From positions 1-29,300 of the IMG/VR virus record IMGVR_UViG_3300017759_000044: a DNA stretch of 29,300 bases; one strand, 5' to 3'. The notes below the pieces were generated by a model. The model saw only the letters and a program-made list of their open reading frames with translations. It did not search any database and was not told where the DNA came from. The translations under genes were made by a program, and so were the position numbers. This stretch comes from a virus. Below, in pieces: positions 1 to 6,460 of the stretch (its first letter is position 1; every line of letters begins with the position of its first letter).

Positions 1-36
1 GAACGATCAGTATTCAACTGATTATTGAACGTACAT
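1..36. repeat. Short inverted repeats downstream of small terminase
   Basis: The stretch after the small terminase stop holds alternating copies of TTCAA and TTGAA (13-17, 25-29, 36-40). ATTGAA at 24-29 pairs perfectly with TTCAAT at 36-41 around a 6-nt loop, and TTCAA at 13-17 can pair with 25-29 instead. No T-run follows on either strand, so this is not a clear terminator. On the minus strand an ATG at 36 is followed by a stop after four codons, so the next leftward gene starts outside the window. Confidence 0.35.
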
Positions 37-498
37 TCAATGAGTGACATCTGACTCATCGATATCTGACTCGTCGACAACTGGCAAGGATAGCTCAGAC
101 AACTTACGTTTAAGATCGTTCTCGATGTCGTTACTGGAACGCTCGGTCACATCTTCGATGCGTGTAGTGTACATACCTGAGACCTTTGCGAGGATTGACA
201 ACGACTGAACCTGAGTCGATTCCAGATCGATTGTTCCAGATATATGATCGCGTAGGGTACGTGTGACGAGTTCTTGGCTGGATACACTCCGAGCCATATT
301 AAGATCACTCTTTCGCTTAATAATCGCGTTAACCGTACTCGCTATATACTCCAGCTTCATCAGCTTAGAAGCGCTGTTTCTGACCGTCTGACTAGAACCG
401 TTACTGTCGTATGCTTCTCTATATGCATCGGCTTGAGTTTTACCGCTCGCGACCAGCTCGCAAAATCTGCGTTGTTTAGCAGTGAGTTTATCAGTCAT
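37..498 (-). CDS. Terminase small subunit (Terminase_2 type)
   Basis: Predicted small terminase, which recognises the packaging site on phage DNA and hands it to the large ATPase/nuclease subunit. The N-terminus has the family's opening helix-turn-helix (LTAKQRRFCELV, then SGKTQADAYREAY, residues 5-30). Helical segments follow (about residues 35-110), then an acidic tail ending ESDIDESDVTH. Length (153 aa) is normal for the family. The ATG at 498 is preceded on the minus strand by GGAG, 9 nt away. It is the only gene on this strand at this end and is transcribed away from the early operon. The large subunit would be expected just to the left, outside the window. The family is assigned by motif recognition; the DNA target is unknown. 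Confidence 0.85.
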   Translation of the reverse strand: MTDKLTAKQRRFCELVASGKTQADAYREAYDSNGSSQTVRNSASKLMKLEYIASTVNAIIKRKSDLNMARSVSSQELVTRTLRDHISGTIDLESTQVQSLSILAKVSGMYTTRIEDVTERSSNDIENDLKRKLSELSLPVVDESDIDESDVTH

Positions 499-660
499 CT
501 TTTATAGCTCCGTTTTATTCGATAGCTGAGATCATACATGCATACTATTGACAAGTCACCACTAGACGCACGCAGAGACGATCTGAGCGACTTTATCACT
601 GGCCCTAGTGCTAGTATCAAAAACAAATTACTTTGCGACATGTGACATTCTGAGCAATGC

Positions 661-675
661 GTTACTTCAAGTAAC
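661..675. promoter_or_regulatory. Perfect dyad GTTACTT-C-AAGTAAC
   Basis: Seven-base arms around a single central base form a 15-bp palindrome in the non-coding gap between small terminase and the rightward operon. The half-site shares GTTAC with the TGTTAC repeats immediately downstream. The arrangement is typical of an operator for a dimeric repressor, but no repressor gene is recognised in the window. Confidence 0.5.
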
Positions 676-704
676 ACATCGACATATTACAAATACATAT
701 TTAT

Positions 705-773
705 TTGTTACATAACAACAACTTACTAATGTCAAGTCCTGATTTGTTACCGCAAGTGTTACCGATATGTTAC
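705..773. repeat. TGTTAC repeat cluster with palindrome TTGTTA-CA-TAACAA
   Basis: TGTTAC occurs at 706-711, 745-750, 757-762 and 768-773. The last three are spaced 12 and 11 bp apart, so they lie on nearly the same face of the helix. The copy at 706 is half of a palindrome (705-718, 6-bp arms, 2-bp centre), and another copy lies at 867-872. The surroundings are AT-rich. This fits either an array of operator half-sites or origin iterons. Nothing in the sequence decides between them. Confidence 0.5.
707..735 (-). promoter_or_regulatory. Candidate leftward promoter toward small terminase
   Basis: On the minus strand a perfect TTGACA (735-730) is followed after 17 bp by TGTAAC (712-707), four of six matches to TATAAT. 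The -10 box lies inside the palindrome at 705-718, so a protein bound there would block RNA polymerase. It points at the small terminase gene about 210 bp away. This is a sequence match only. Confidence 0.35.
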
Positions 774-799
774 TGTGCTACTCATATCAGTGGAATATA

Positions 800-850
800 T
801 GACATAATAACACCTGACATTTTGACATAATTAATATGTGACTTTTTATT
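800..850 (+). promoter_or_regulatory. Candidate rightward early promoter with TGACAT repeats
   Basis: TGACAT occurs three times at 800-805, 815-820 and 823-828. The last forms a consensus -35 box TTGACA (822-827), followed after 17 bp by TTTATT (845-850, four of six matches to a sigma-70 -10). Transcription would start near 857 and read through the structured leader, the first hammerhead ribozyme and the operon from 1150. The -35 is strong and the -10 is weak. Confidence 0.4.
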
Positions 851-861
851 CCTTTACATTT

Positions 862-880
862 CAACATGTTACAAATGTTG
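862..880. repeat. Inverted repeat CAACAT / ATGTTG
   Basis: CAACAT (862-867) and ATGTTG (875-880) are perfect complements around a 7-nt spacer that completes another TGTTAC. It sits just after the predicted rightward start point, so it may act as an operator or form a 5' hairpin on the transcript. Confidence 0.35.
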
Positions 881-904
881 GCATGGATAATGCTTTACTC
901 TTGA

Positions 905-1071
905 TAAGTCGACAGCGACAGCGCCCACTACGGGCCACCGACACCTAGGGTCAATCGGTAGCGAGAAACACAGACTTAACTGAACGGCCCAGTATACGGT
1001 CGGACTCCAGAGGGACGCTCTATTGTGAGCAGATCAAAGGGATGACTTCAGAACATGCTGCGGTCTAGAGG
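905..1071 (+). ncRNA. Structured untranslated leader upstream of the first ribozyme
   Basis: This gene-free stretch is clearly more GC-rich than the AT-rich DNA before it and contains successive small hairpins. GCCC/GGGC is at 923-926 / 932-935. ACCGA/TCGGT is at 937-941 / 955-959 with an inner ACC/GGT pair. GCTC/GAGC is at 1017-1020 / 1027-1030. No open frame with a ribosome-binding site is evident and there is no tRNA T-loop. If the promoter near 822 and the ribozyme at 1072 are both active, this would be released as a leader RNA of about 220 nt ending at 1079. No known RNA family was recognised. Confidence 0.4.
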
Positions 1072-1127
1072 GTTAGATAAGCGCCTGAAGCTGGCGTTCT
1101 GACGAGGCCAGCAAGCCGAAATCTAAC
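1072..1127 (+). ncRNA. Hammerhead self-cleaving ribozyme 1 (type III topology)
   Basis: All elements of a hammerhead are present in the right order. Stem III is GTTAGAT (1072-1078) with ATCTAAC (1121-1127), seven perfect pairs. The cleavage triplet is AUA with H17 = A1079, so the predicted cut is 1079/1080. Stem I is AGCGCC (1080-1085) with GGCGTT (1093-1098), six pairs including one G-U, around a 7-nt loop. The core CTGACGA is at 1099-1105. Stem II is GGC/GCC (1106-1108, 1115-1117) with a 6-nt loop. GAA is at 1118-1120, and A1121 pairs with U1078 as required. GCU in loop I can pair with AGC in loop II, a plausible distal contact. The ribozyme ends 22 nt before the ATG at 1150, upstream of the GAGG ribosome-binding site. 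Stem III is the open helix, hence type III. Confidence 0.93.
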
Positions 1128-1149
1128 ACTATTAAATGAGGATATAACG

Positions 1150-1365
1150 ATGATTAAACATTCAAACACCGGCGAGAAAGTGACCCCATTGACAGCAGTC
1201 AAATATGAGATGGCTCATAAAATTGGCGGGCTATTTTATGTTAACTGGGAGGATGAATACCCAGACGCGACTGAGCGAGAGCTGAAGCTGCTAGAGCATC
1301 ATGCTGAGGTGCTGGTTGATCGACTCGCAAAATTGCTAGGAGATCAGGGCTGCTGGACTGGATAA
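1150..1365 (+). CDS. Small acidic protein of unknown function between two ribozymes
   Basis: A 71-residue protein with no recognised family. The second half is predicted helical and charged (ERELKLLEHHAEVLVDRLAKLL, residues about 43-64, divided here as ERELKLLEHH and AEVLVDRLAKLL), preceded by an aromatic/acidic stretch FYVNWEDEYPD. The ATG at 1150 has GAGG 9 nt upstream. The TAA stop (1363-1365) ends one base before stem I of the second hammerhead ribozyme, and the first ribozyme ends 22 nt before the start codon, so this gene is packed between two self-cleaving RNAs. As first gene of the rightward operon it is probably expressed early. Possible roles such as a small host-takeover or regulatory protein are guesses. 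Confidence 0.75.
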   Translation: MIKHSNTGEKVTPLTAVKYEMAHKIGGLFYVNWEDEYPDATERELKLLEHHAEVLVDRLAKLLGDQGCWTG

Positions 1366-1366
1366 A

Positions 1367-1425
1367 TCAACACTGACGAGAGCCAGCTGGTAACTGGTCG
1401 AAACCGCAGCGATGCGGTCTGTTGA
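1367..1425 (+). ncRNA. Hammerhead self-cleaving ribozyme 2 (type I topology)
   Basis: A second complete hammerhead. Stem I is TCAACA (1367-1372) with TGTTGA (1420-1425), six perfect pairs, and is the open helix. Core CTGACGA is at 1373-1379. Stem II pairs GA and CCAG (1380-1381, 1383-1386, with G1382 bulged) with CTGGTC (1394-1399) around a 7-nt loop. GAA is at 1400-1402. Stem III is ACCGCA (1403-1408) with TGCGGT (1413-1418), capped by the GNRA tetraloop GCGA. The cleavage triplet is the classic GUC with H17 = C1419, so the predicted cut is 1419/1420. It begins right after the stop codon of the 71-residue gene. The downstream product would start 26 nt before the ATG at 1446, keeping its AAGGAAAG ribosome-binding site. 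Its stems share no sequence with ribozyme 1, so it is not a simple duplicate. Confidence 0.94.
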
Positions 1426-1445
1426 AACCATATAAGGAAAGCAAC

Positions 1446-1682
1446 ATGCAATATCAAGCGACCGATCATTTTTGGCAGCGAGCGCGGGAGCGCCAGCTGT
1501 TGAGCCGATACGCGGATATCATTGCAGCAGTAAAGCAGGGCCGAAAAATTCCGCAGCGAAACAATAGAGGCGAGCTGCTGTCTGACGTATTCGCGCATAT
1601 AGGCGAGCAGATAACTGTTATTGCTCAGGTCACTGAGCAGACAACCAATTTAATAACTATCTATGAAACGAAGGGAATATAA
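1446..1682 (+). CDS. Small DUF4258-like protein
   Basis: A 78-residue protein. The N-terminus (TDHFWQRARERQL) followed by a short helix (YADIIAAVKQGRKI), then alternating strands ending VIAQVTEQTTNLITIYETK, resembles the DUF4258 / toxin-like RNase fold pattern. In that family a His and an Arg near the start and a C-terminal beta sheet are conserved. The match is by pattern only. The start is the ATG at 1446, with AAGGAAAG 8-9 nt upstream; a TTG 24 nt earlier is inside the ribozyme stem and is rejected. It follows the second hammerhead directly and ends 2 nt before the DUF3150 gene, so the two are probably translated from one mRNA. Whether it is an active nuclease cannot be told. Confidence 0.7.
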   Translation: MQYQATDHFWQRARERQLLSRYADIIAAVKQGRKIPQRNNRGELLSDVFAHIGEQITVIAQVTEQTTNLITIYETKGI

Positions 1683-1684
1683 CT

Positions 1685-2701
1685 ATGGAAAACAAACTTC
1701 AAATGATGCAGCAAAGCGCGAGCGATGCTGTAAAAACCGCAGCAAATAATTTTGTTTTGCTGAGCGTCAAAGTATCGTTCTGGGATGGCGTAGCAAATCT
1801 CACTGGTGCTGCTGAGAAAGCAGCTCTCAACGCTGGAGCTGATCCTGATGGTACGCGCATGTATAAAAATCTGCTAGGCCAATTTCACGGAAAATTGCGA
1901 GAAGTCAAAACAAAATTCCGCAAGCTTAGAACAGCTCTCGATATTGCTTCGATACCCTACGCTCTCGCTCAAGATGACGGCCAGCGACGAGGCGAGAAAA
2001 TGCTGCACGTTACAAGGTACCCAAAAGTTCTTGCTGAACTAATCGCATTACGAGATTCAGCTTTCGATCAGCTCTCAGAATTTTTGAGCAGATACGACGA
2101 GTATCGCTCGCAGGCGCTTGATCAAAATTTCGGCACTTGGAGAGCTGAAGCTGAGAAATTATTTCCGACCAAAGCCGAGGTGATGGCTAAATTTTGCATC
2201 GAGATCAGTGACCCTAAGCCTTTACCAGTGTTCAGCGATGCTCAGCAAGCGACTTTCAATGTTCCAGCTAATGTCATGGCCGAAATTGTCGCTCAGTCTA
2301 ACGCTGCTATATCTAGGCAGTTAGAAGGAGCTAAACAAGATCAGATTCAGTCTGCTCTCAAAACTTGCGAGACGGCCCTTAAACAGCTCACTGATGGCAA
2401 GCGATTTCATCAGTCCGTTATTGATAACGTCAAGCAAGAGGCCGTTAAACTTGGCGAGATCAGTCAGGGATACGATGGCGATCATCGTGTCAAAAAAATC
2501 GCCGAGACTATGCTCGACGGTATCGCTAATGTGAGTGAACCTGAGCAGTGGAAAAATCACGATGGCAAGAAAGCAGAAGCCAAGCTTGCTGCTGAGAAGT
2601 CAGTTCAAAATCTCAAGCGCATGGCTCAAGCTGCACCAGTCGCACCTATTCCTGACTCGTCAGGCGTGATACTTCCAGAGATCACAGCCGATCTTATTTA
2701 A
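1685..2701 (+). CDS. DUF3150 family protein
   Basis: A 338-residue mostly helical protein matching the DUF3150 pattern: an N-terminal SVKVSFWDGVANLT segment, then MYKNLLGQFHGKLREVKTKFRKLRTAL (residues about 60-85, quoted here as MYKNLLGQFHG and KLREVKTKFRK), and a C-terminal helical part. DUF3150 genes are typically found in phages and plasmids beside MoxR-type AAA ATPases and VWA-domain proteins, which is the arrangement here: the AAA gene starts 32 nt downstream. Function is unknown. As an inference from gene order, it may be an adaptor or substrate of the ATPase/VWA pair. The start ATG at 1685 lies 2 nt after the previous stop, with GGGAA upstream. Confidence 0.8.
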   Translation: MENKLQMMQQSASDAVKTAANNFVLLSVKVSFWDGVANLTGAAEKAALNAGADPDGTRMYKNLLGQFHGKLREVKTKFRKLRTALDIASIPYALAQDDGQRRGEKMLHVTRYPKVLAELIALRDSAFDQLSEFLSRYDEYRSQALDQNFGTWRAEAEKLFPTKAEVMAKFCIEISDPKPLPVFSDAQQATFNVPANVMAEIVAQSNAAISRQLEGAKQDQIQSALKTCETALKQLTDGKRFHQSVIDNVKQEAVKLGEISQGYDGDHRVKKIAETMLDGIANVSEPEQWKNHDGKKAEAKLAAEKSVQNLKRMAQAAPVAPIPDSSGVILPEITADLI

Positions 2702-2733
2702 TATTAACTCTATGAAACCAAAGGAAAAATGTT

Positions 2734-3930
2734 ATGACTACTAAAACTCAAAAGACTACTAAAACTCAAAATATTCTCACTACAACAGCCGAGCTAATCA
2801 AAAATCACTTGCCGATCTTGATGGCAACGCAGACCGAATCAGGTTATCAGGGCTCGATGTCGGCTGTAGTGGTCGGCGCTGCCGGCACTGGTAAAACGTA
2901 CATTATGACTAATCAAGTTAGGCAGCTATGGGCTGATGCCAATGGTGTCAGTCTCGATGATGTCGGAATCTTGGTTTATCGGGCTGCTGATCGTGATGCT
3001 GCTGAATTCGCTGGCTTGATGATGCCTAGTAAGAATGCTGCTGGTGAGCTGCACACGGTCGCTAGTATTCCTGATCTTGTATCTCAGATCAGATCGCTGC
3101 GCGATCATGGCAAGTCGCATATCGTCCTAGTGCTTGATGAGATCATGCAGGCGAGCCAAGATGTGCAAAAAACGCTGAGCGATCTGCTTGACCGCAATAC
3201 CAATTGCCTTGGAGGTCATGACTTAGGCGCTGGAATTTTCGTGGTCGGCACTGGCAATCGACAGGCTGACAAGTCAGGCGCGAGGCCAGCACTAGGTCAT
3301 CTCAGAAATCGCATGTGCCTTTTTGAGCTGGAGGGATACAACGGAGATACTGTCGCTGAATGGGTGCGCGACTATGCAGAGCCAGCAGGCATATTGCCAG
3401 CGATTATCGATGTTGCGAGAGATCATGCCGACGATAATTTTTTCGCCGATGCTGTCCCGATTGATGGCGGTTTTTGTTCTTTCAGAGCGCTGACTAACGC
3501 GAGTCGATTGATCAGCACGTACATGGAGCGCACTGGCAAAGTCAAGCTGAGCATCAGCATGCAAGGGCTGGTCGCTGCCGTTGTCGGCGAGAGCGCTGCT
3601 ACGATCATCGCAGATCATTTTGACTGCGCGAATGAGGTTCCCACAGCAGATGACATCTTAAACAGTCCAGAAACGGCGATGGTTCCTGATCAGACAGGTT
3701 ATCAGAATATCGCTGGAACGCTGGCCTTACAGCTTGCTGTTGACTCTCAGTCAGCTGACGCAGCTATCGTGTACATAACGCGATTGAGACGCGACTTGCA
3801 GGTTCAGCTAGGTGTCAGATTGCTCAATAAATCTGAGCGCATCGGCAGCATTCTGATCAGCGCGACCGCTAATAAATTCATCAGAGAGCATCAAGAACAA
3901 ATCGCTCTCGCTTCAGATATGGAGGTATAA
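2734..3930 (+). CDS. MoxR/CobS-type AAA+ ATPase
   Basis: A 398-residue AAA+ ATPase. Walker A is GAAGTGKT (residues about 48-55) and Walker B is VLVLDE (about 131-136). A sensor region follows in FVVGTGNRQ, with an arginine-rich stretch HLRNRM behind it that could hold the arginine finger. The overall plan and the partner gene point to the MoxR/CobS branch, whose members work as chaperone-like remodellers with a VWA-domain partner. The VWA-peptidase gene begins one base after this stop, with GGAGG (3921-3925) inside this gene's end, so the two are almost certainly co-translated. The target of the complex is unknown. Cobalt chelation, the namesake activity of CobS, is unlikely since no cobalamin genes are present. 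Confidence 0.85.
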   Translation: MTTKTQKTTKTQNILTTTAELIKNHLPILMATQTESGYQGSMSAVVVGAAGTGKTYIMTNQVRQLWADANGVSLDDVGILVYRAADRDAAEFAGLMMPSKNAAGELHTVASIPDLVSQIRSLRDHGKSHIVLVLDEIMQASQDVQKTLSDLLDRNTNCLGGHDLGAGIFVVGTGNRQADKSGARPALGHLRNRMCLFELEGYNGDTVAEWVRDYAEPAGILPAIIDVARDHADDNFFADAVPIDGGFCSFRALTNASRLISTYMERTGKVKLSISMQGLVAAVVGESAATIIADHFDCANEVPTADDILNSPETAMVPDQTGYQNIAGTLALQLAVDSQSADAAIVYITRLRRDLQVQLGVRLLNKSERIGSILISATANKFIREHQEQIALASDMEV

Positions 3931-3931
3931 C

Positions 3932-5419
3932 ATGCAAGCCAAAAAACATTTTGATAATACTAATCCTGAGATGTCGGACTCTAAACAATTCGCGTCAGCG
4001 ATGATCATCTTGTCAGCCAAAGCTCGCATATACTGGCGCTTTGTCATTATGCATGAAGTTATCTGGACTCAAAAGTTGCCGACTGCTGCTACCGATGGGG
4101 TTTATATTTATGTCAATCCTGACTTCTTCACCAATTTACCGAGCGATAGCCAGCGAGCGTTTTTGCTAGGGCATGAAGTCGGTCACATGATTTTGAGACA
4201 CCCGCAACGTGGCAAGGCTTTTCGCAAGCGAGAATTTTTTCGCATAGTGAAGGGCCAGCGTATTCCTTTTGACCATAAACTTTTTAATCGCTCTGCTGAT
4301 TTAGTCATCAACGACGATCTACTAGCGCATGGTCTTGAGAAAATCGAGTGCGGTCTATACAGCGAAAAATACGGTCGCGATCACTTAGTAGACGATGTCT
4401 ATATGGAGCTATGGCAAGAGCAGCAAGAGCAGCAAGATCAGCAGCAAGATCAGCAAGATCAGCAGCAATCTAATGACAGCTCTGACAGCTCTGACGATGC
4501 TGACGATGCTGACGGCACTGACGGCACTGACGGTTCTGATGGTTCTGATGGTTCTGATGGTTCTGATGATGCTGACGGTTCTGATGATTCGCAGCAGGAT
4601 GATTCATCTACTCCTGACGAGTCAGCAGGTACAGATCATGACGGACACGATACCCATCTTGAGCCGATATATGATGGCACTGCTGAAGAAGTCGCGCAGG
4701 CCGAAGCTGAAGACACTCGTACACTTGATCGCACTCTTAAAGATGGTATCGAGGATCAAGAGCAAGCGGTTGAGGATGGCGAGTGTCGCGACATCGGACA
4801 TGGCGCTGGACTTGACGAGCGAGTCAAAGCTTCACAAAGCCGAATGAGCGCACCTATAACATGGCGCGACGAGATACCTGATCTGCTTCAAAAGGCTGGC
4901 AAGGGTGGCTCAGTGTCATGGTCTCGCATACACTCACGACGATTCAATCTGTACGGTGTTGTGTCACCAGTCACCAAAGGCTCGCTCAATCAAGCAGCGA
5001 TCATTATCGACATATCATACTCTGTTGATCGAAACGCTCTGAACGAATATCTGCACGTTGTTGCCGATATGATTGACGAGTTGCAGCCGACTGATGGCTT
5101 TCTGATATTGCTTACAGCCGACAGCGTTGAGCATTGCTACGAGGTCTATTCAGGTGCTGAGCTGCTCGATCTTGAGATTCCCTACGGTGGCGGAACCAAC
5201 ATGTCAGCAGGCTTGGATTACATCGAAGAGCAGGGCTATTCGCCCGATCTTGTCATGGTCTTTACTGACTACGAAGTCACTCATGATGATGGCAAGCGAC
5301 TGGTTGATGAGGGCTGCGTGATCGTGATGGACGGCCAGCCATCAGAATACGCTCGTTGGGTAATGGGCCGAACAGACCCGCGAGTGATCACTGTGGATGA
5401 CAGCTCACTCGCAGCGTAA
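3932..5419 (+). CDS. Metallopeptidase-like / VWA-domain protein (DUF2201-like)
   Basis: A 495-residue two-domain protein. The N-terminal domain carries a zinc-protease signature HEVGH (residues 81-85), with SADLVINDDL downstream (about 115-124), as in the putative metallopeptidase domain of DUF2201 proteins. A low-complexity linker follows (about 161-225: Gln/Glu/Asp repeats, then Ser/Asp/Gly repeats). The C-terminal VWA-like domain has a MIDAS-type DISYS (about 360-364), a GGGTNMSAGL loop and FTDYE, all expected metal-binding positions. It presumably partners with the AAA ATPase encoded immediately upstream, as MoxR-VWA pairs do. The protease motif suggests it may cut a protein rather than only bind it. 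No family member's phage function is known to me. Confidence 0.85.
   Translation: MQAKKHFDNTNPEMSDSKQFASAMIILSAKARIYWRFVIMHEVIWTQKLPTAATDGVYIYVNPDFFTNLPSDSQRAFLLGHEVGHMILRHPQRGKAFRKREFFRIVKGQRIPFDHKLFNRSADLVINDDLLAHGLEKIECGLYSEKYGRDHLVDDVYMELWQEQQEQQDQQQDQQDQQQSNDSSDSSDDADDADGTDGTDGSDGSDGSDGSDDADGSDDSQQDDSSTPDESAGTDHDGHDTHLEPIYDGTAEEVAQAEAEDTRTLDRTLKDGIEDQEQAVEDGECRDIGHGAGLDERVKASQSRMSAPITWRDEIPDLLQKAGKGGSVSWSRIHSRRFNLYGVVSPVTKGSLNQAAIIIDISYSVDRNALNEYLHVVADMIDELQPTDGFLILLTADSVEHCYEVYSGAELLDLEIPYGGGTNMSAGLDYIEEQGYSPDLVMVFTDYEVTHDDGKRLVDEGCVIVMDGQPSEYARWVMGRTDPRVITVDDSSLAA
4414..4605 (+). repeat. In-frame short tandem repeats coding the acidic linker
   Basis: The linker is made of degenerate 9-bp units. 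The first run is based on CAGCAAGAK (coding QQE/QQD). The second is based on GAYGGYTCT, GACGGCACT and GACGATGCT (coding DGS, DGT, DDA). Several units are exact copies, for example four consecutive gatggttct-type units near 4530-4565. Such arrays change length by slippage without breaking the frame. Confidence 0.8.
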
Positions 5420-5969: not shown

Positions 5970-5983
5970 CTTAGGAGTAAGCT

Positions 5984-6460
5984 ATGAAACTTGAGGATGT
6001 CTTAGACCCATTATCGTGTGCAGGCTTGGTACACGAGGGCTATGCTGGATTTACTGAAAACAACGAATTTTTCTTAAACCTACGAATGTTTTACGACAAA
6101 AAACATTCTTGGCTTGAGGTTCCTATACACCTACTTGCGATGATGAAATTGCTGCCAAACGATTTCTCAAAGTATTGCTATATCGACAGAGAAAAATCTC
6201 GACTGTATTTAGACGAAGATGTTGATGTTGGCATGTTTATGAAAGCGTGTTATGACTGGCCGAAAAATATAAACAGAGGAATCAATATGTCAAAAGCTAT
6301 GGAATTCTTGGGAGATGACGCAATCGCAGAATGGAATACGATTAAGGATTGTAAATTAGTTGGAGAATCTCTCGTTGATTCTATCCAATTTAAAACAAAT
6401 TCAGAAACCGATTTCATCAAAGATTTTGCCAAGAACGATAAAGGCCAGTCTATCCATTAG
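5984..6460 (+). CDS. Hypothetical protein, last gene of the left operon
   Basis: A 158-residue protein with no recognised family and no obvious motif. The sequence is mixed alpha/beta and mildly acidic, with aromatic-rich NNEFFLNLRMFYDKKHSWLEV near the start (residues about 26-46, quoted as FFLNLRMFYDKKHSW). ATG at 5984 has AGGAG about 7 nt upstream and the gene starts 14 nt after the membrane protein. It ends the rightward operon by overlapping the end of the leftward operon by 11 nt (6450-6460), so the two operons converge with no room for a dedicated terminator. Confidence 0.7.
   Translation: MKLEDVLDPLSCAGLVHEGYAGFTENNEFFLNLRMFYDKKHSWLEVPIHLLAMMKLLPNDFSKYCYIDREKSRLYLDEDVDVGMFMKACYDWPKNINRGINMSKAMEFLGDDAIAEWNTIKDCKLVGESLVDSIQFKTNSETDFIKDFAKNDKGQSIH

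What the first reader, a model, noticed from the sequence alone, without database searches (positions are those of the whole stretch)
1367..1425. Second, unrelated type I hammerhead ribozyme directly after the first gene
Independent of ribozyme 1 in sequence and topology, yet again complete: core CTGACGA (1373-1379), GAA (1400-1402), GUC cleavage triplet (1417-1419), stem I 6 bp, stem III 6 bp capped by a GNRA loop, stem II 6 bp with one bulged G. Its first paired base is 2 nt after the stop codon. Two complete hammerheads within 350 bp cannot be chance.
Basis: partly seen in the sequence, partly recalled or inferred. Interest (0 to 1): 0.95.

Follow-up and report, generated by a model that had tools for sequence, protein, structure and literature searches.

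The report
Self-cutting RNA between two phage genes
Between two small genes of a marine phage lies a complete self-cutting RNA, of a kind found here between neighbouring genes in at least a hundred other phage contigs; it probably cuts the shared message so that the two genes end up on separate mRNAs.

Summary
Window 1367-1425 folds as a complete type I hammerhead with a GUC|U cleavage site at 1419/1420. It is not chance. A covariance model built only from 47 hammerheads of other phages finds it at 69.9 bits, E 2e-17; the next site in the window scores 13.5 bits. Rfam's own models miss it at their cut-offs.

The bulge in stem II is a trait of the class, not a defect.

The class sits between genes. 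Of 117 members, 96 lie between a stop codon and a start codon, against 10.5% of random positions. PaP3, a cultured phage with an intergenic hammerhead listed as active in 2011, has one in the same arrangement. Upstream HHR1 is a type III. Across phages, type III tends to head operons and type I tends to separate cistrons.

Most likely role: co-transcriptional cutting of the early mRNA. With HHR1 this would release a 340-nt p71 RNA. Cleavage was not tested. Phage hammerhead clusters are known since 2011, so this is a new member of a known kind.

The parts
1367..1425 (+). HHR2, type I hammerhead: stem I, core, stem II, GAA, stem III (GCGA loop), C17, stem I 3' strand
   Evidence: Sequence; descriptor and shuffles; model R1 69.9 bits, E 2e-17; Rfam sub-threshold
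1373..1379 (+). catalytic core CUGACGA
1380..1399 (+). stem II with one unpaired residue (A1381 or G1382) and 7-nt loop CUGGUAA (1387-1393)
   Evidence: Same geometry in 47 of 123 class members
1388..1391 (+). pseudoknot strand 1, UGGU in loop II
   Evidence: Covariation in relatives
1427..1430 (+). pseudoknot strand 2, ACCA, separated from C17 by 7 nt
   Evidence: Covariation in relatives; fixed register
1419..1420 (+). predicted cleavage site (GUC|U)
   Evidence: Established hammerhead chemistry; not tested here
1363..1365 (+). TAA stop of the 71-aa gene, 1 nt before stem I
1150..1365 (+). 71-aa ORF (p71), upstream cistron; no family match
1434..1448 (+). Shine-Dalgarno-like AAGGA and ATG of the downstream cistron
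1446..1682 (+). 78-aa ORF (p78), downstream cistron, weak DUF4258 match; homologues in L004, L005, L006
1072..1127 (+). HHR1, type III hammerhead in the leader, predicted cleavage 1079/1080; conserved with compensatory stem changes in L002 and in L006/L012/L013

Best explanation
HHR2 is a pseudoknot-stabilised type I hammerhead that works as an intercistronic self-processing site in a phage early operon. As the mRNA is made, HHR2 folds and cuts at 1419/1420. Nearly the whole ribozyme stays on the 3' end of the p71 message as a structured tail with a cyclic phosphate. The p78 message begins with a 5'-OH and a 26-nt leader carrying its Shine-Dalgarno sequence. The type III HHR1 upstream cuts at 1079/1080 and leaves its body on the 5' end of the p71 message. 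Together they would release a 340-nt p71 RNA (1080-1419) and uncouple p71 from the p78-p338-MoxR-VWA operon. Shown here: the structure, its covariation, and the stop-ribozyme-start placement across phages. Inferred: cleavage, the RNA ends in vivo, that the operon is early, and the effect on stability or translation.
For: A model from other phages finds HHR2 with E 2e-17. Helices are 99.6% paired in 47 relatives (stem pairing partly selected); the pseudoknot, not selected for, is 98.4% paired and 103/123 perfect against a shuffle mean of 57.6, maximum 74 of 2000. 96 of 117 class members lie between a stop and a start codon, against 10.5% of random positions; commonest stop-to-stem distance 0-2 nt, stem-to-start about 18-28 nt. 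Type I: upstream ORF in 236/293; type III: 4/20, downstream ORF in 18/20; Fisher p 4e-8, p 3e-4 after collapsing relatives. PaP3 has the same arrangement at 44028-44113, TAA abutting stem I, and an intergenic PaP3 hammerhead is listed among active ones in PMC3088659. The same paper shows tandem bacterial/prophage hammerheads cutting polycistronic RNA in vitro, one set in E. coli, and an HF1/HF2 halovirus transcript 5' end within 3 nt of a hammerhead cleavage site.
Against: No cleavage or RNA-end data for this phage. Folded alone without the pseudoknot, the hammerhead fold of HHR2 is about 4.4 kcal/mol above a competing fold that uses core bases (-16.8 against -21.2). No close relative keeps HHR2: those with p78 have a type III hammerhead or other leaders instead, so it is dispensable or recently gained. 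p71 is found only in this phage. Whether the paper's PaP3 ribozyme is the site found here was not confirmed from its figure.
Confidence: 0.72

Rival explanations
1. The ribozyme is a translation-linked switch rather than a constitutive scissor. A ribosome ending p71 at 1363-1365 would cover stem I and the CUGA core and block cleavage. The intact pseudoknot would cover the 5' edge of the p78 ribosome site. So cleavage, and p78 output, would depend on how heavily p71 is translated.
For: Stop codon abuts or overlaps stem I in most class members. ACCA lies 16-19 nt before the p78 ATG. Stem-to-start spacing is tight.
Against: Close packing is also expected from compact phage genomes. No data on cleavage with and without translation.
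Confidence: 0.13
2. The two ribozymes release a p71 RNA with 5'-OH and 2',3'-cyclic phosphate ends that is then joined into a circle by an RtcB-type ligase or by the ribozyme's reverse reaction.
For: Type III followed by type I leaves matching ends and both ribozyme bodies on the same 340-nt RNA; type III then type I order 13 against 3 in neighbouring pairs.
Against: Perreault et al. looked for spliced or circular products of tandem hammerheads and found none (PMC3088659). Host and its ligases unknown.
Confidence: 0.04
3. HHR2 is a decayed or inactive copy of a mobile hammerhead, kept by chance.
For: Missing from close relatives; a competing fold is better in isolation.
Against: All core bases, three stems and the pseudoknot are intact, with the class register and geometry. 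Its score is in the range of other class members.
Confidence: 0.08
4. Chance resemblance.
For: Rfam matches alone are sub-threshold.
Against: E 2e-17 with an independent model; shuffles.
Confidence: 0.01

Closest known systems
Type I hammerhead clusters of phages and prophages (Perreault et al. 2011, PMC3088659)
   Same: Core, type I topology, stem I/II pseudoknot, intergenic place, several ribozymes around single genes; polycistronic processing proposed there.
   Different: New phage; loop II pairs with the flank 3' of stem I at a fixed register; paired with a type III at the operon head.
Hammerhead of Pseudomonas phage PaP3 (NC_004466, 44028-44113, - strand)
   Same: Type I, TAA abutting stem I, pseudoknot UGAUU/AAUCA, then SD and start; R1 42.5 bits.
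   Different: Long stem III; no second R1 match in that genome (a type III was not searched for there).
Rfam RF03152 RAGATH-1-hammerhead and RF00163 Hammerhead_1
   Same: Core and order of stems.
   Different: HHR2 scores far below both cut-offs. In 12 loci with class members only one type I hit reached the cut-off.
HHphage of haloviruses HF1/HF2 (PMC3088659)
   Same: A hammerhead just upstream of an early gene; mapped transcript end near its cleavage site; compare HHR1.
   Different: Core variant, archaeal virus.

Membership tests
Hammerhead ribozyme, type I | CUGANGA ... GAA core and NUH cleavage triplet | tested here: met
   CUGACGA 1373-1379, GAA 1400-1402, GUC 1417-1419
Hammerhead ribozyme, type I | Three helices round the core with stem I open | tested here: met
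   Stems of 6, 6 (one bulge) and 6 bp
Hammerhead ribozyme, type I | Self-cleavage at H17 giving 5'-OH and 2',3'-cyclic phosphate | not testable with these tools
   No bench assay
Rfam RF00163 Hammerhead_1 | Bit score at or above 34 | tested here: not met
   21.8 bits; the model also misses most of the class
Rfam RF03152 RAGATH-1-hammerhead | Bit score at or above 56.3 | tested here: not met
   29.2 bits
Phage intercistronic type I class with loop II / 3' flank pseudoknot (defined here, model R1) | Loop II HURGUNA pairing with a flank (mostly ACCA or ACUA) that follows H17 after 7 nt | tested here: met
   CUGGUAA and ACCA at the exact register
Phage intercistronic type I class with loop II / 3' flank pseudoknot (defined here, model R1) | Placed between a stop codon and the next start codon on the same strand | tested here: met
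   Stop 1 nt before stem I, ATG 20 nt after it

The most novel reading that the evidence does not exclude
Phages use the permuted hammerhead types as position-specific punctuation. Type III heads early operons and leaves its body as a 5' cap on the message. Type I sits between each stop codon and the next ribosome site and leaves its body as a 3' cap. The operon thus cuts itself into single-gene mRNAs, and in this window the p71 message would carry a ribozyme body at both ends. I found no statement of this rule in the papers searched.
Probability: 0.4. Interest if true: 0.72.

Novelty: new member of a known kind. Interest (0 to 1): 0.52.

Why it matters
The biological role of bacterial and phage hammerheads was called unproven in 2011 and still unknown in 2023 (PMC3088659, PMC10085705). 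HHR2 belongs to a large set of phage hammerheads that Rfam mostly misses and that sit at a fixed place between cistrons. Flanking genes are mostly short unknowns plus anti-restriction proteins and MoxR-type ATPases. That makes the processing hypothesis directly testable by mapping 5'-OH ends in infected cells, and cultured Pseudomonas phages related to PaP3 carry a member of the class.

Tried and rejected
Direct homologues of HHR2 among phages sharing p78, p338 or MoxR: none in nine other contigs. Relatives of p71: none besides an identical contig. BLASTN of the region against sequenced phages: only chance matches. Rfam at its cut-offs: no hit. A repeated CTATGAAAC leader motif as a degenerate hammerhead: only 5 matches with up to one mismatch, fewer than chance, and no hammerhead there by descriptor. 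The leader of L004/L005 as a known ribozyme: no Rfam match. MFE folding as a test: not decisive, since the PaP3 ribozyme also has a non-hammerhead MFE fold. MoxR regions of KPP21, Ab2712 and CR9: no class hammerhead. Consensus promoters or terminators between p71 and p78: none on the + strand.

Full report
The observation. I read 1-3600 of the window and confirmed each coordinate of the finding. Stem I UCAACA/UGUUGA, core CUGACGA, stem II, GAA, stem III ACCGCA-GCGA-UGCGGU and the GUC triplet are all there. Rfam gives only sub-threshold matches: RAGATH-1-hammerhead 29.2 bits and Hammerhead_1 21.8 bits. A strict descriptor finds two hammerheads in the window and none elsewhere: type III at 1072-1127 and type I at 1367-1425. 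In 200 dinucleotide shuffles a loose cut-off gave two type I hits in all, none with 6-bp stems I and III.

Nearest relatives. The window is a 29.3-kb virus record. The genes are a small terminase on the minus strand, then on the plus strand p71, p78 (weak DUF4258), p338, a MoxR-like ATPase and a DUF2201 metallopeptidase/VWA protein. One contig is identical where it overlaps (L001). L002, L004, L005 and L006 share p338 and MoxR. HHR1 is conserved in L002 and in L006/L012/L013 with compensatory stem changes. HHR2 is in none of them. In L006 the type III hammerhead sits directly upstream of the p78 homologue, the place HHR2 has in the window.

A wider class. The second pattern gave 8 stretches in 257 Gb of bacterial and archaeal genomes. 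The first set holds about 165 distinct complete type I hammerheads, often several per contig. The second defines the class to which HHR2 belongs: 123 distinct hammerheads besides the window's. Of them 47 have the 7-nt stem II strand with one unpaired residue, as in HHR2. Of 120 pattern matches, 115 had stems I and III of at least 4 bp, although neither stem was in the pattern.

The pseudoknot. In the class, loop II HURGUNA pairs with four bases that follow the cleavage-site residue after 7 nt. The flank was not in the pattern. UGGU goes with ACCA in 65 cases, UAGU with ACUA in 38; 103 of 123 pair perfectly, against a mean of 57.6 and a maximum of 74 in 2000 shuffles. In a 47-sequence alignment the four helices are 99.6% paired, with covariation far above shuffles and slid controls. 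The stems were partly selected for pairing; the pseudoknot was not. HHR2 has CUGGUAA and ACCA in the exact register.

Independent test. A covariance model built from those 47 sequences, none from this phage, finds HHR2 at 1366-1432 with 69.9 bits and E 2e-17. The next place in the window has 13.5 bits. Only one type I hit in 12 loci with class members reached Rfam's cut-off.

Placement. Of 117 class members with room, 96 lie between an ORF ending and an ORF starting on the same strand, against 10.5% of random positions. The stop is most often 0-2 nt before stem I; the start most often 18-28 nt after. For all type I hammerheads in the retrieved loci, 236 of 293 follow an ORF end within 120 nt, median 0 nt. 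For type III only 4 of 20 do, while 18 of 20 precede an ORF start (Fisher p 4e-8). With relatives collapsed by eye to 13 type III groups and one type I per contig the difference stays, p 3e-4. Random positions give 35%. Among neighbouring pairs, type III then type I occurs 13 times and the reverse 3 times (p 0.02). One of the 13 is the copy of this window's own pair, and loci were fetched by type I matches, so these figures are indicative.

Neighbours. Of 70 sampled downstream genes most match no family. The named ones are anti-restriction proteins (ArdA, ArdC, PHROG 7245 and 2059) and MoxR-type ATPases. Four of 265 downstream proteins resemble the window's MoxR.

A cultured member. The model finds PaP3, a Pseudomonas phage, at 44028-44113 on the minus strand with 42.5 bits, TAA abutting stem I and a covaried pseudoknot UGAUU/AAUCA. 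Perreault et al. list an intergenic PaP3 hammerhead among active ones. They also report tandem hammerheads cutting polycistronic RNA in vitro, and one set in E. coli.

Mechanism. By hammerhead topology (established knowledge), type I leaves the ribozyme body on the upstream product and type III on the downstream product. So HHR1 plus HHR2 would release p71 RNA 1080-1419 with a ribozyme body at both ends, and start the p78 message at 1420. Structure and placement are shown; cleavage and its effect are inferred. In isolation a competing fold is 4.4 kcal/mol better than the hammerhead without pseudoknot, so an assay is needed.

Verdict. A real type I hammerhead, a new member of a known kind. The position rule for type III and type I is the part worth following.

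Noticed in passing
window 1072-1127: HHR1, a type III hammerhead in the operon leader, missed by Rfam but conserved with compensatory changes in L002 and L006/L012/L013.
   Followed up: yes
L004:4530-4630, L005:4545-4640, part in L008: In place of the type III hammerhead these relatives carry another conserved structured leader (GCGCAC...GUGCGC with inner GCAGC/GCUGC, then GAGGU-GCUGARA-ACCUC). No Rfam match; might be another ribozyme class.
   Followed up: partly
L005, L008, L011, L015 between small genes: Recurrent hairpin ATATCGAAG...CTTCTATTATGG between small genes of relatives, at the kind of place where HHR2 sits in the window.
   Followed up: no
window 1661-1669, 2710-2718, 5982-5990: CTATGAAAC directly before the ribosome sites or starts of several genes; also in L004, L005 and L008. 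Possibly a phage initiation motif.
   Followed up: partly
L253 (Candidatus Thermoplasmatota MAG, JAUXAU010000001.1): About ten class hammerheads in 8 kb on one strand of an archaeal contig, possibly viral.
   Followed up: no
L144, L177, L229, L240: Class hammerheads directly upstream of MoxR-like ATPase genes, the kind of operon that HHR2 precedes here.
   Followed up: partly
window 3932-5419: PHROG names this family HNH endonuclease (phrog_1314) while Pfam finds a DUF2201 metallopeptidase plus VWA-like domain; the PHROG name looks wrong.
   Followed up: no
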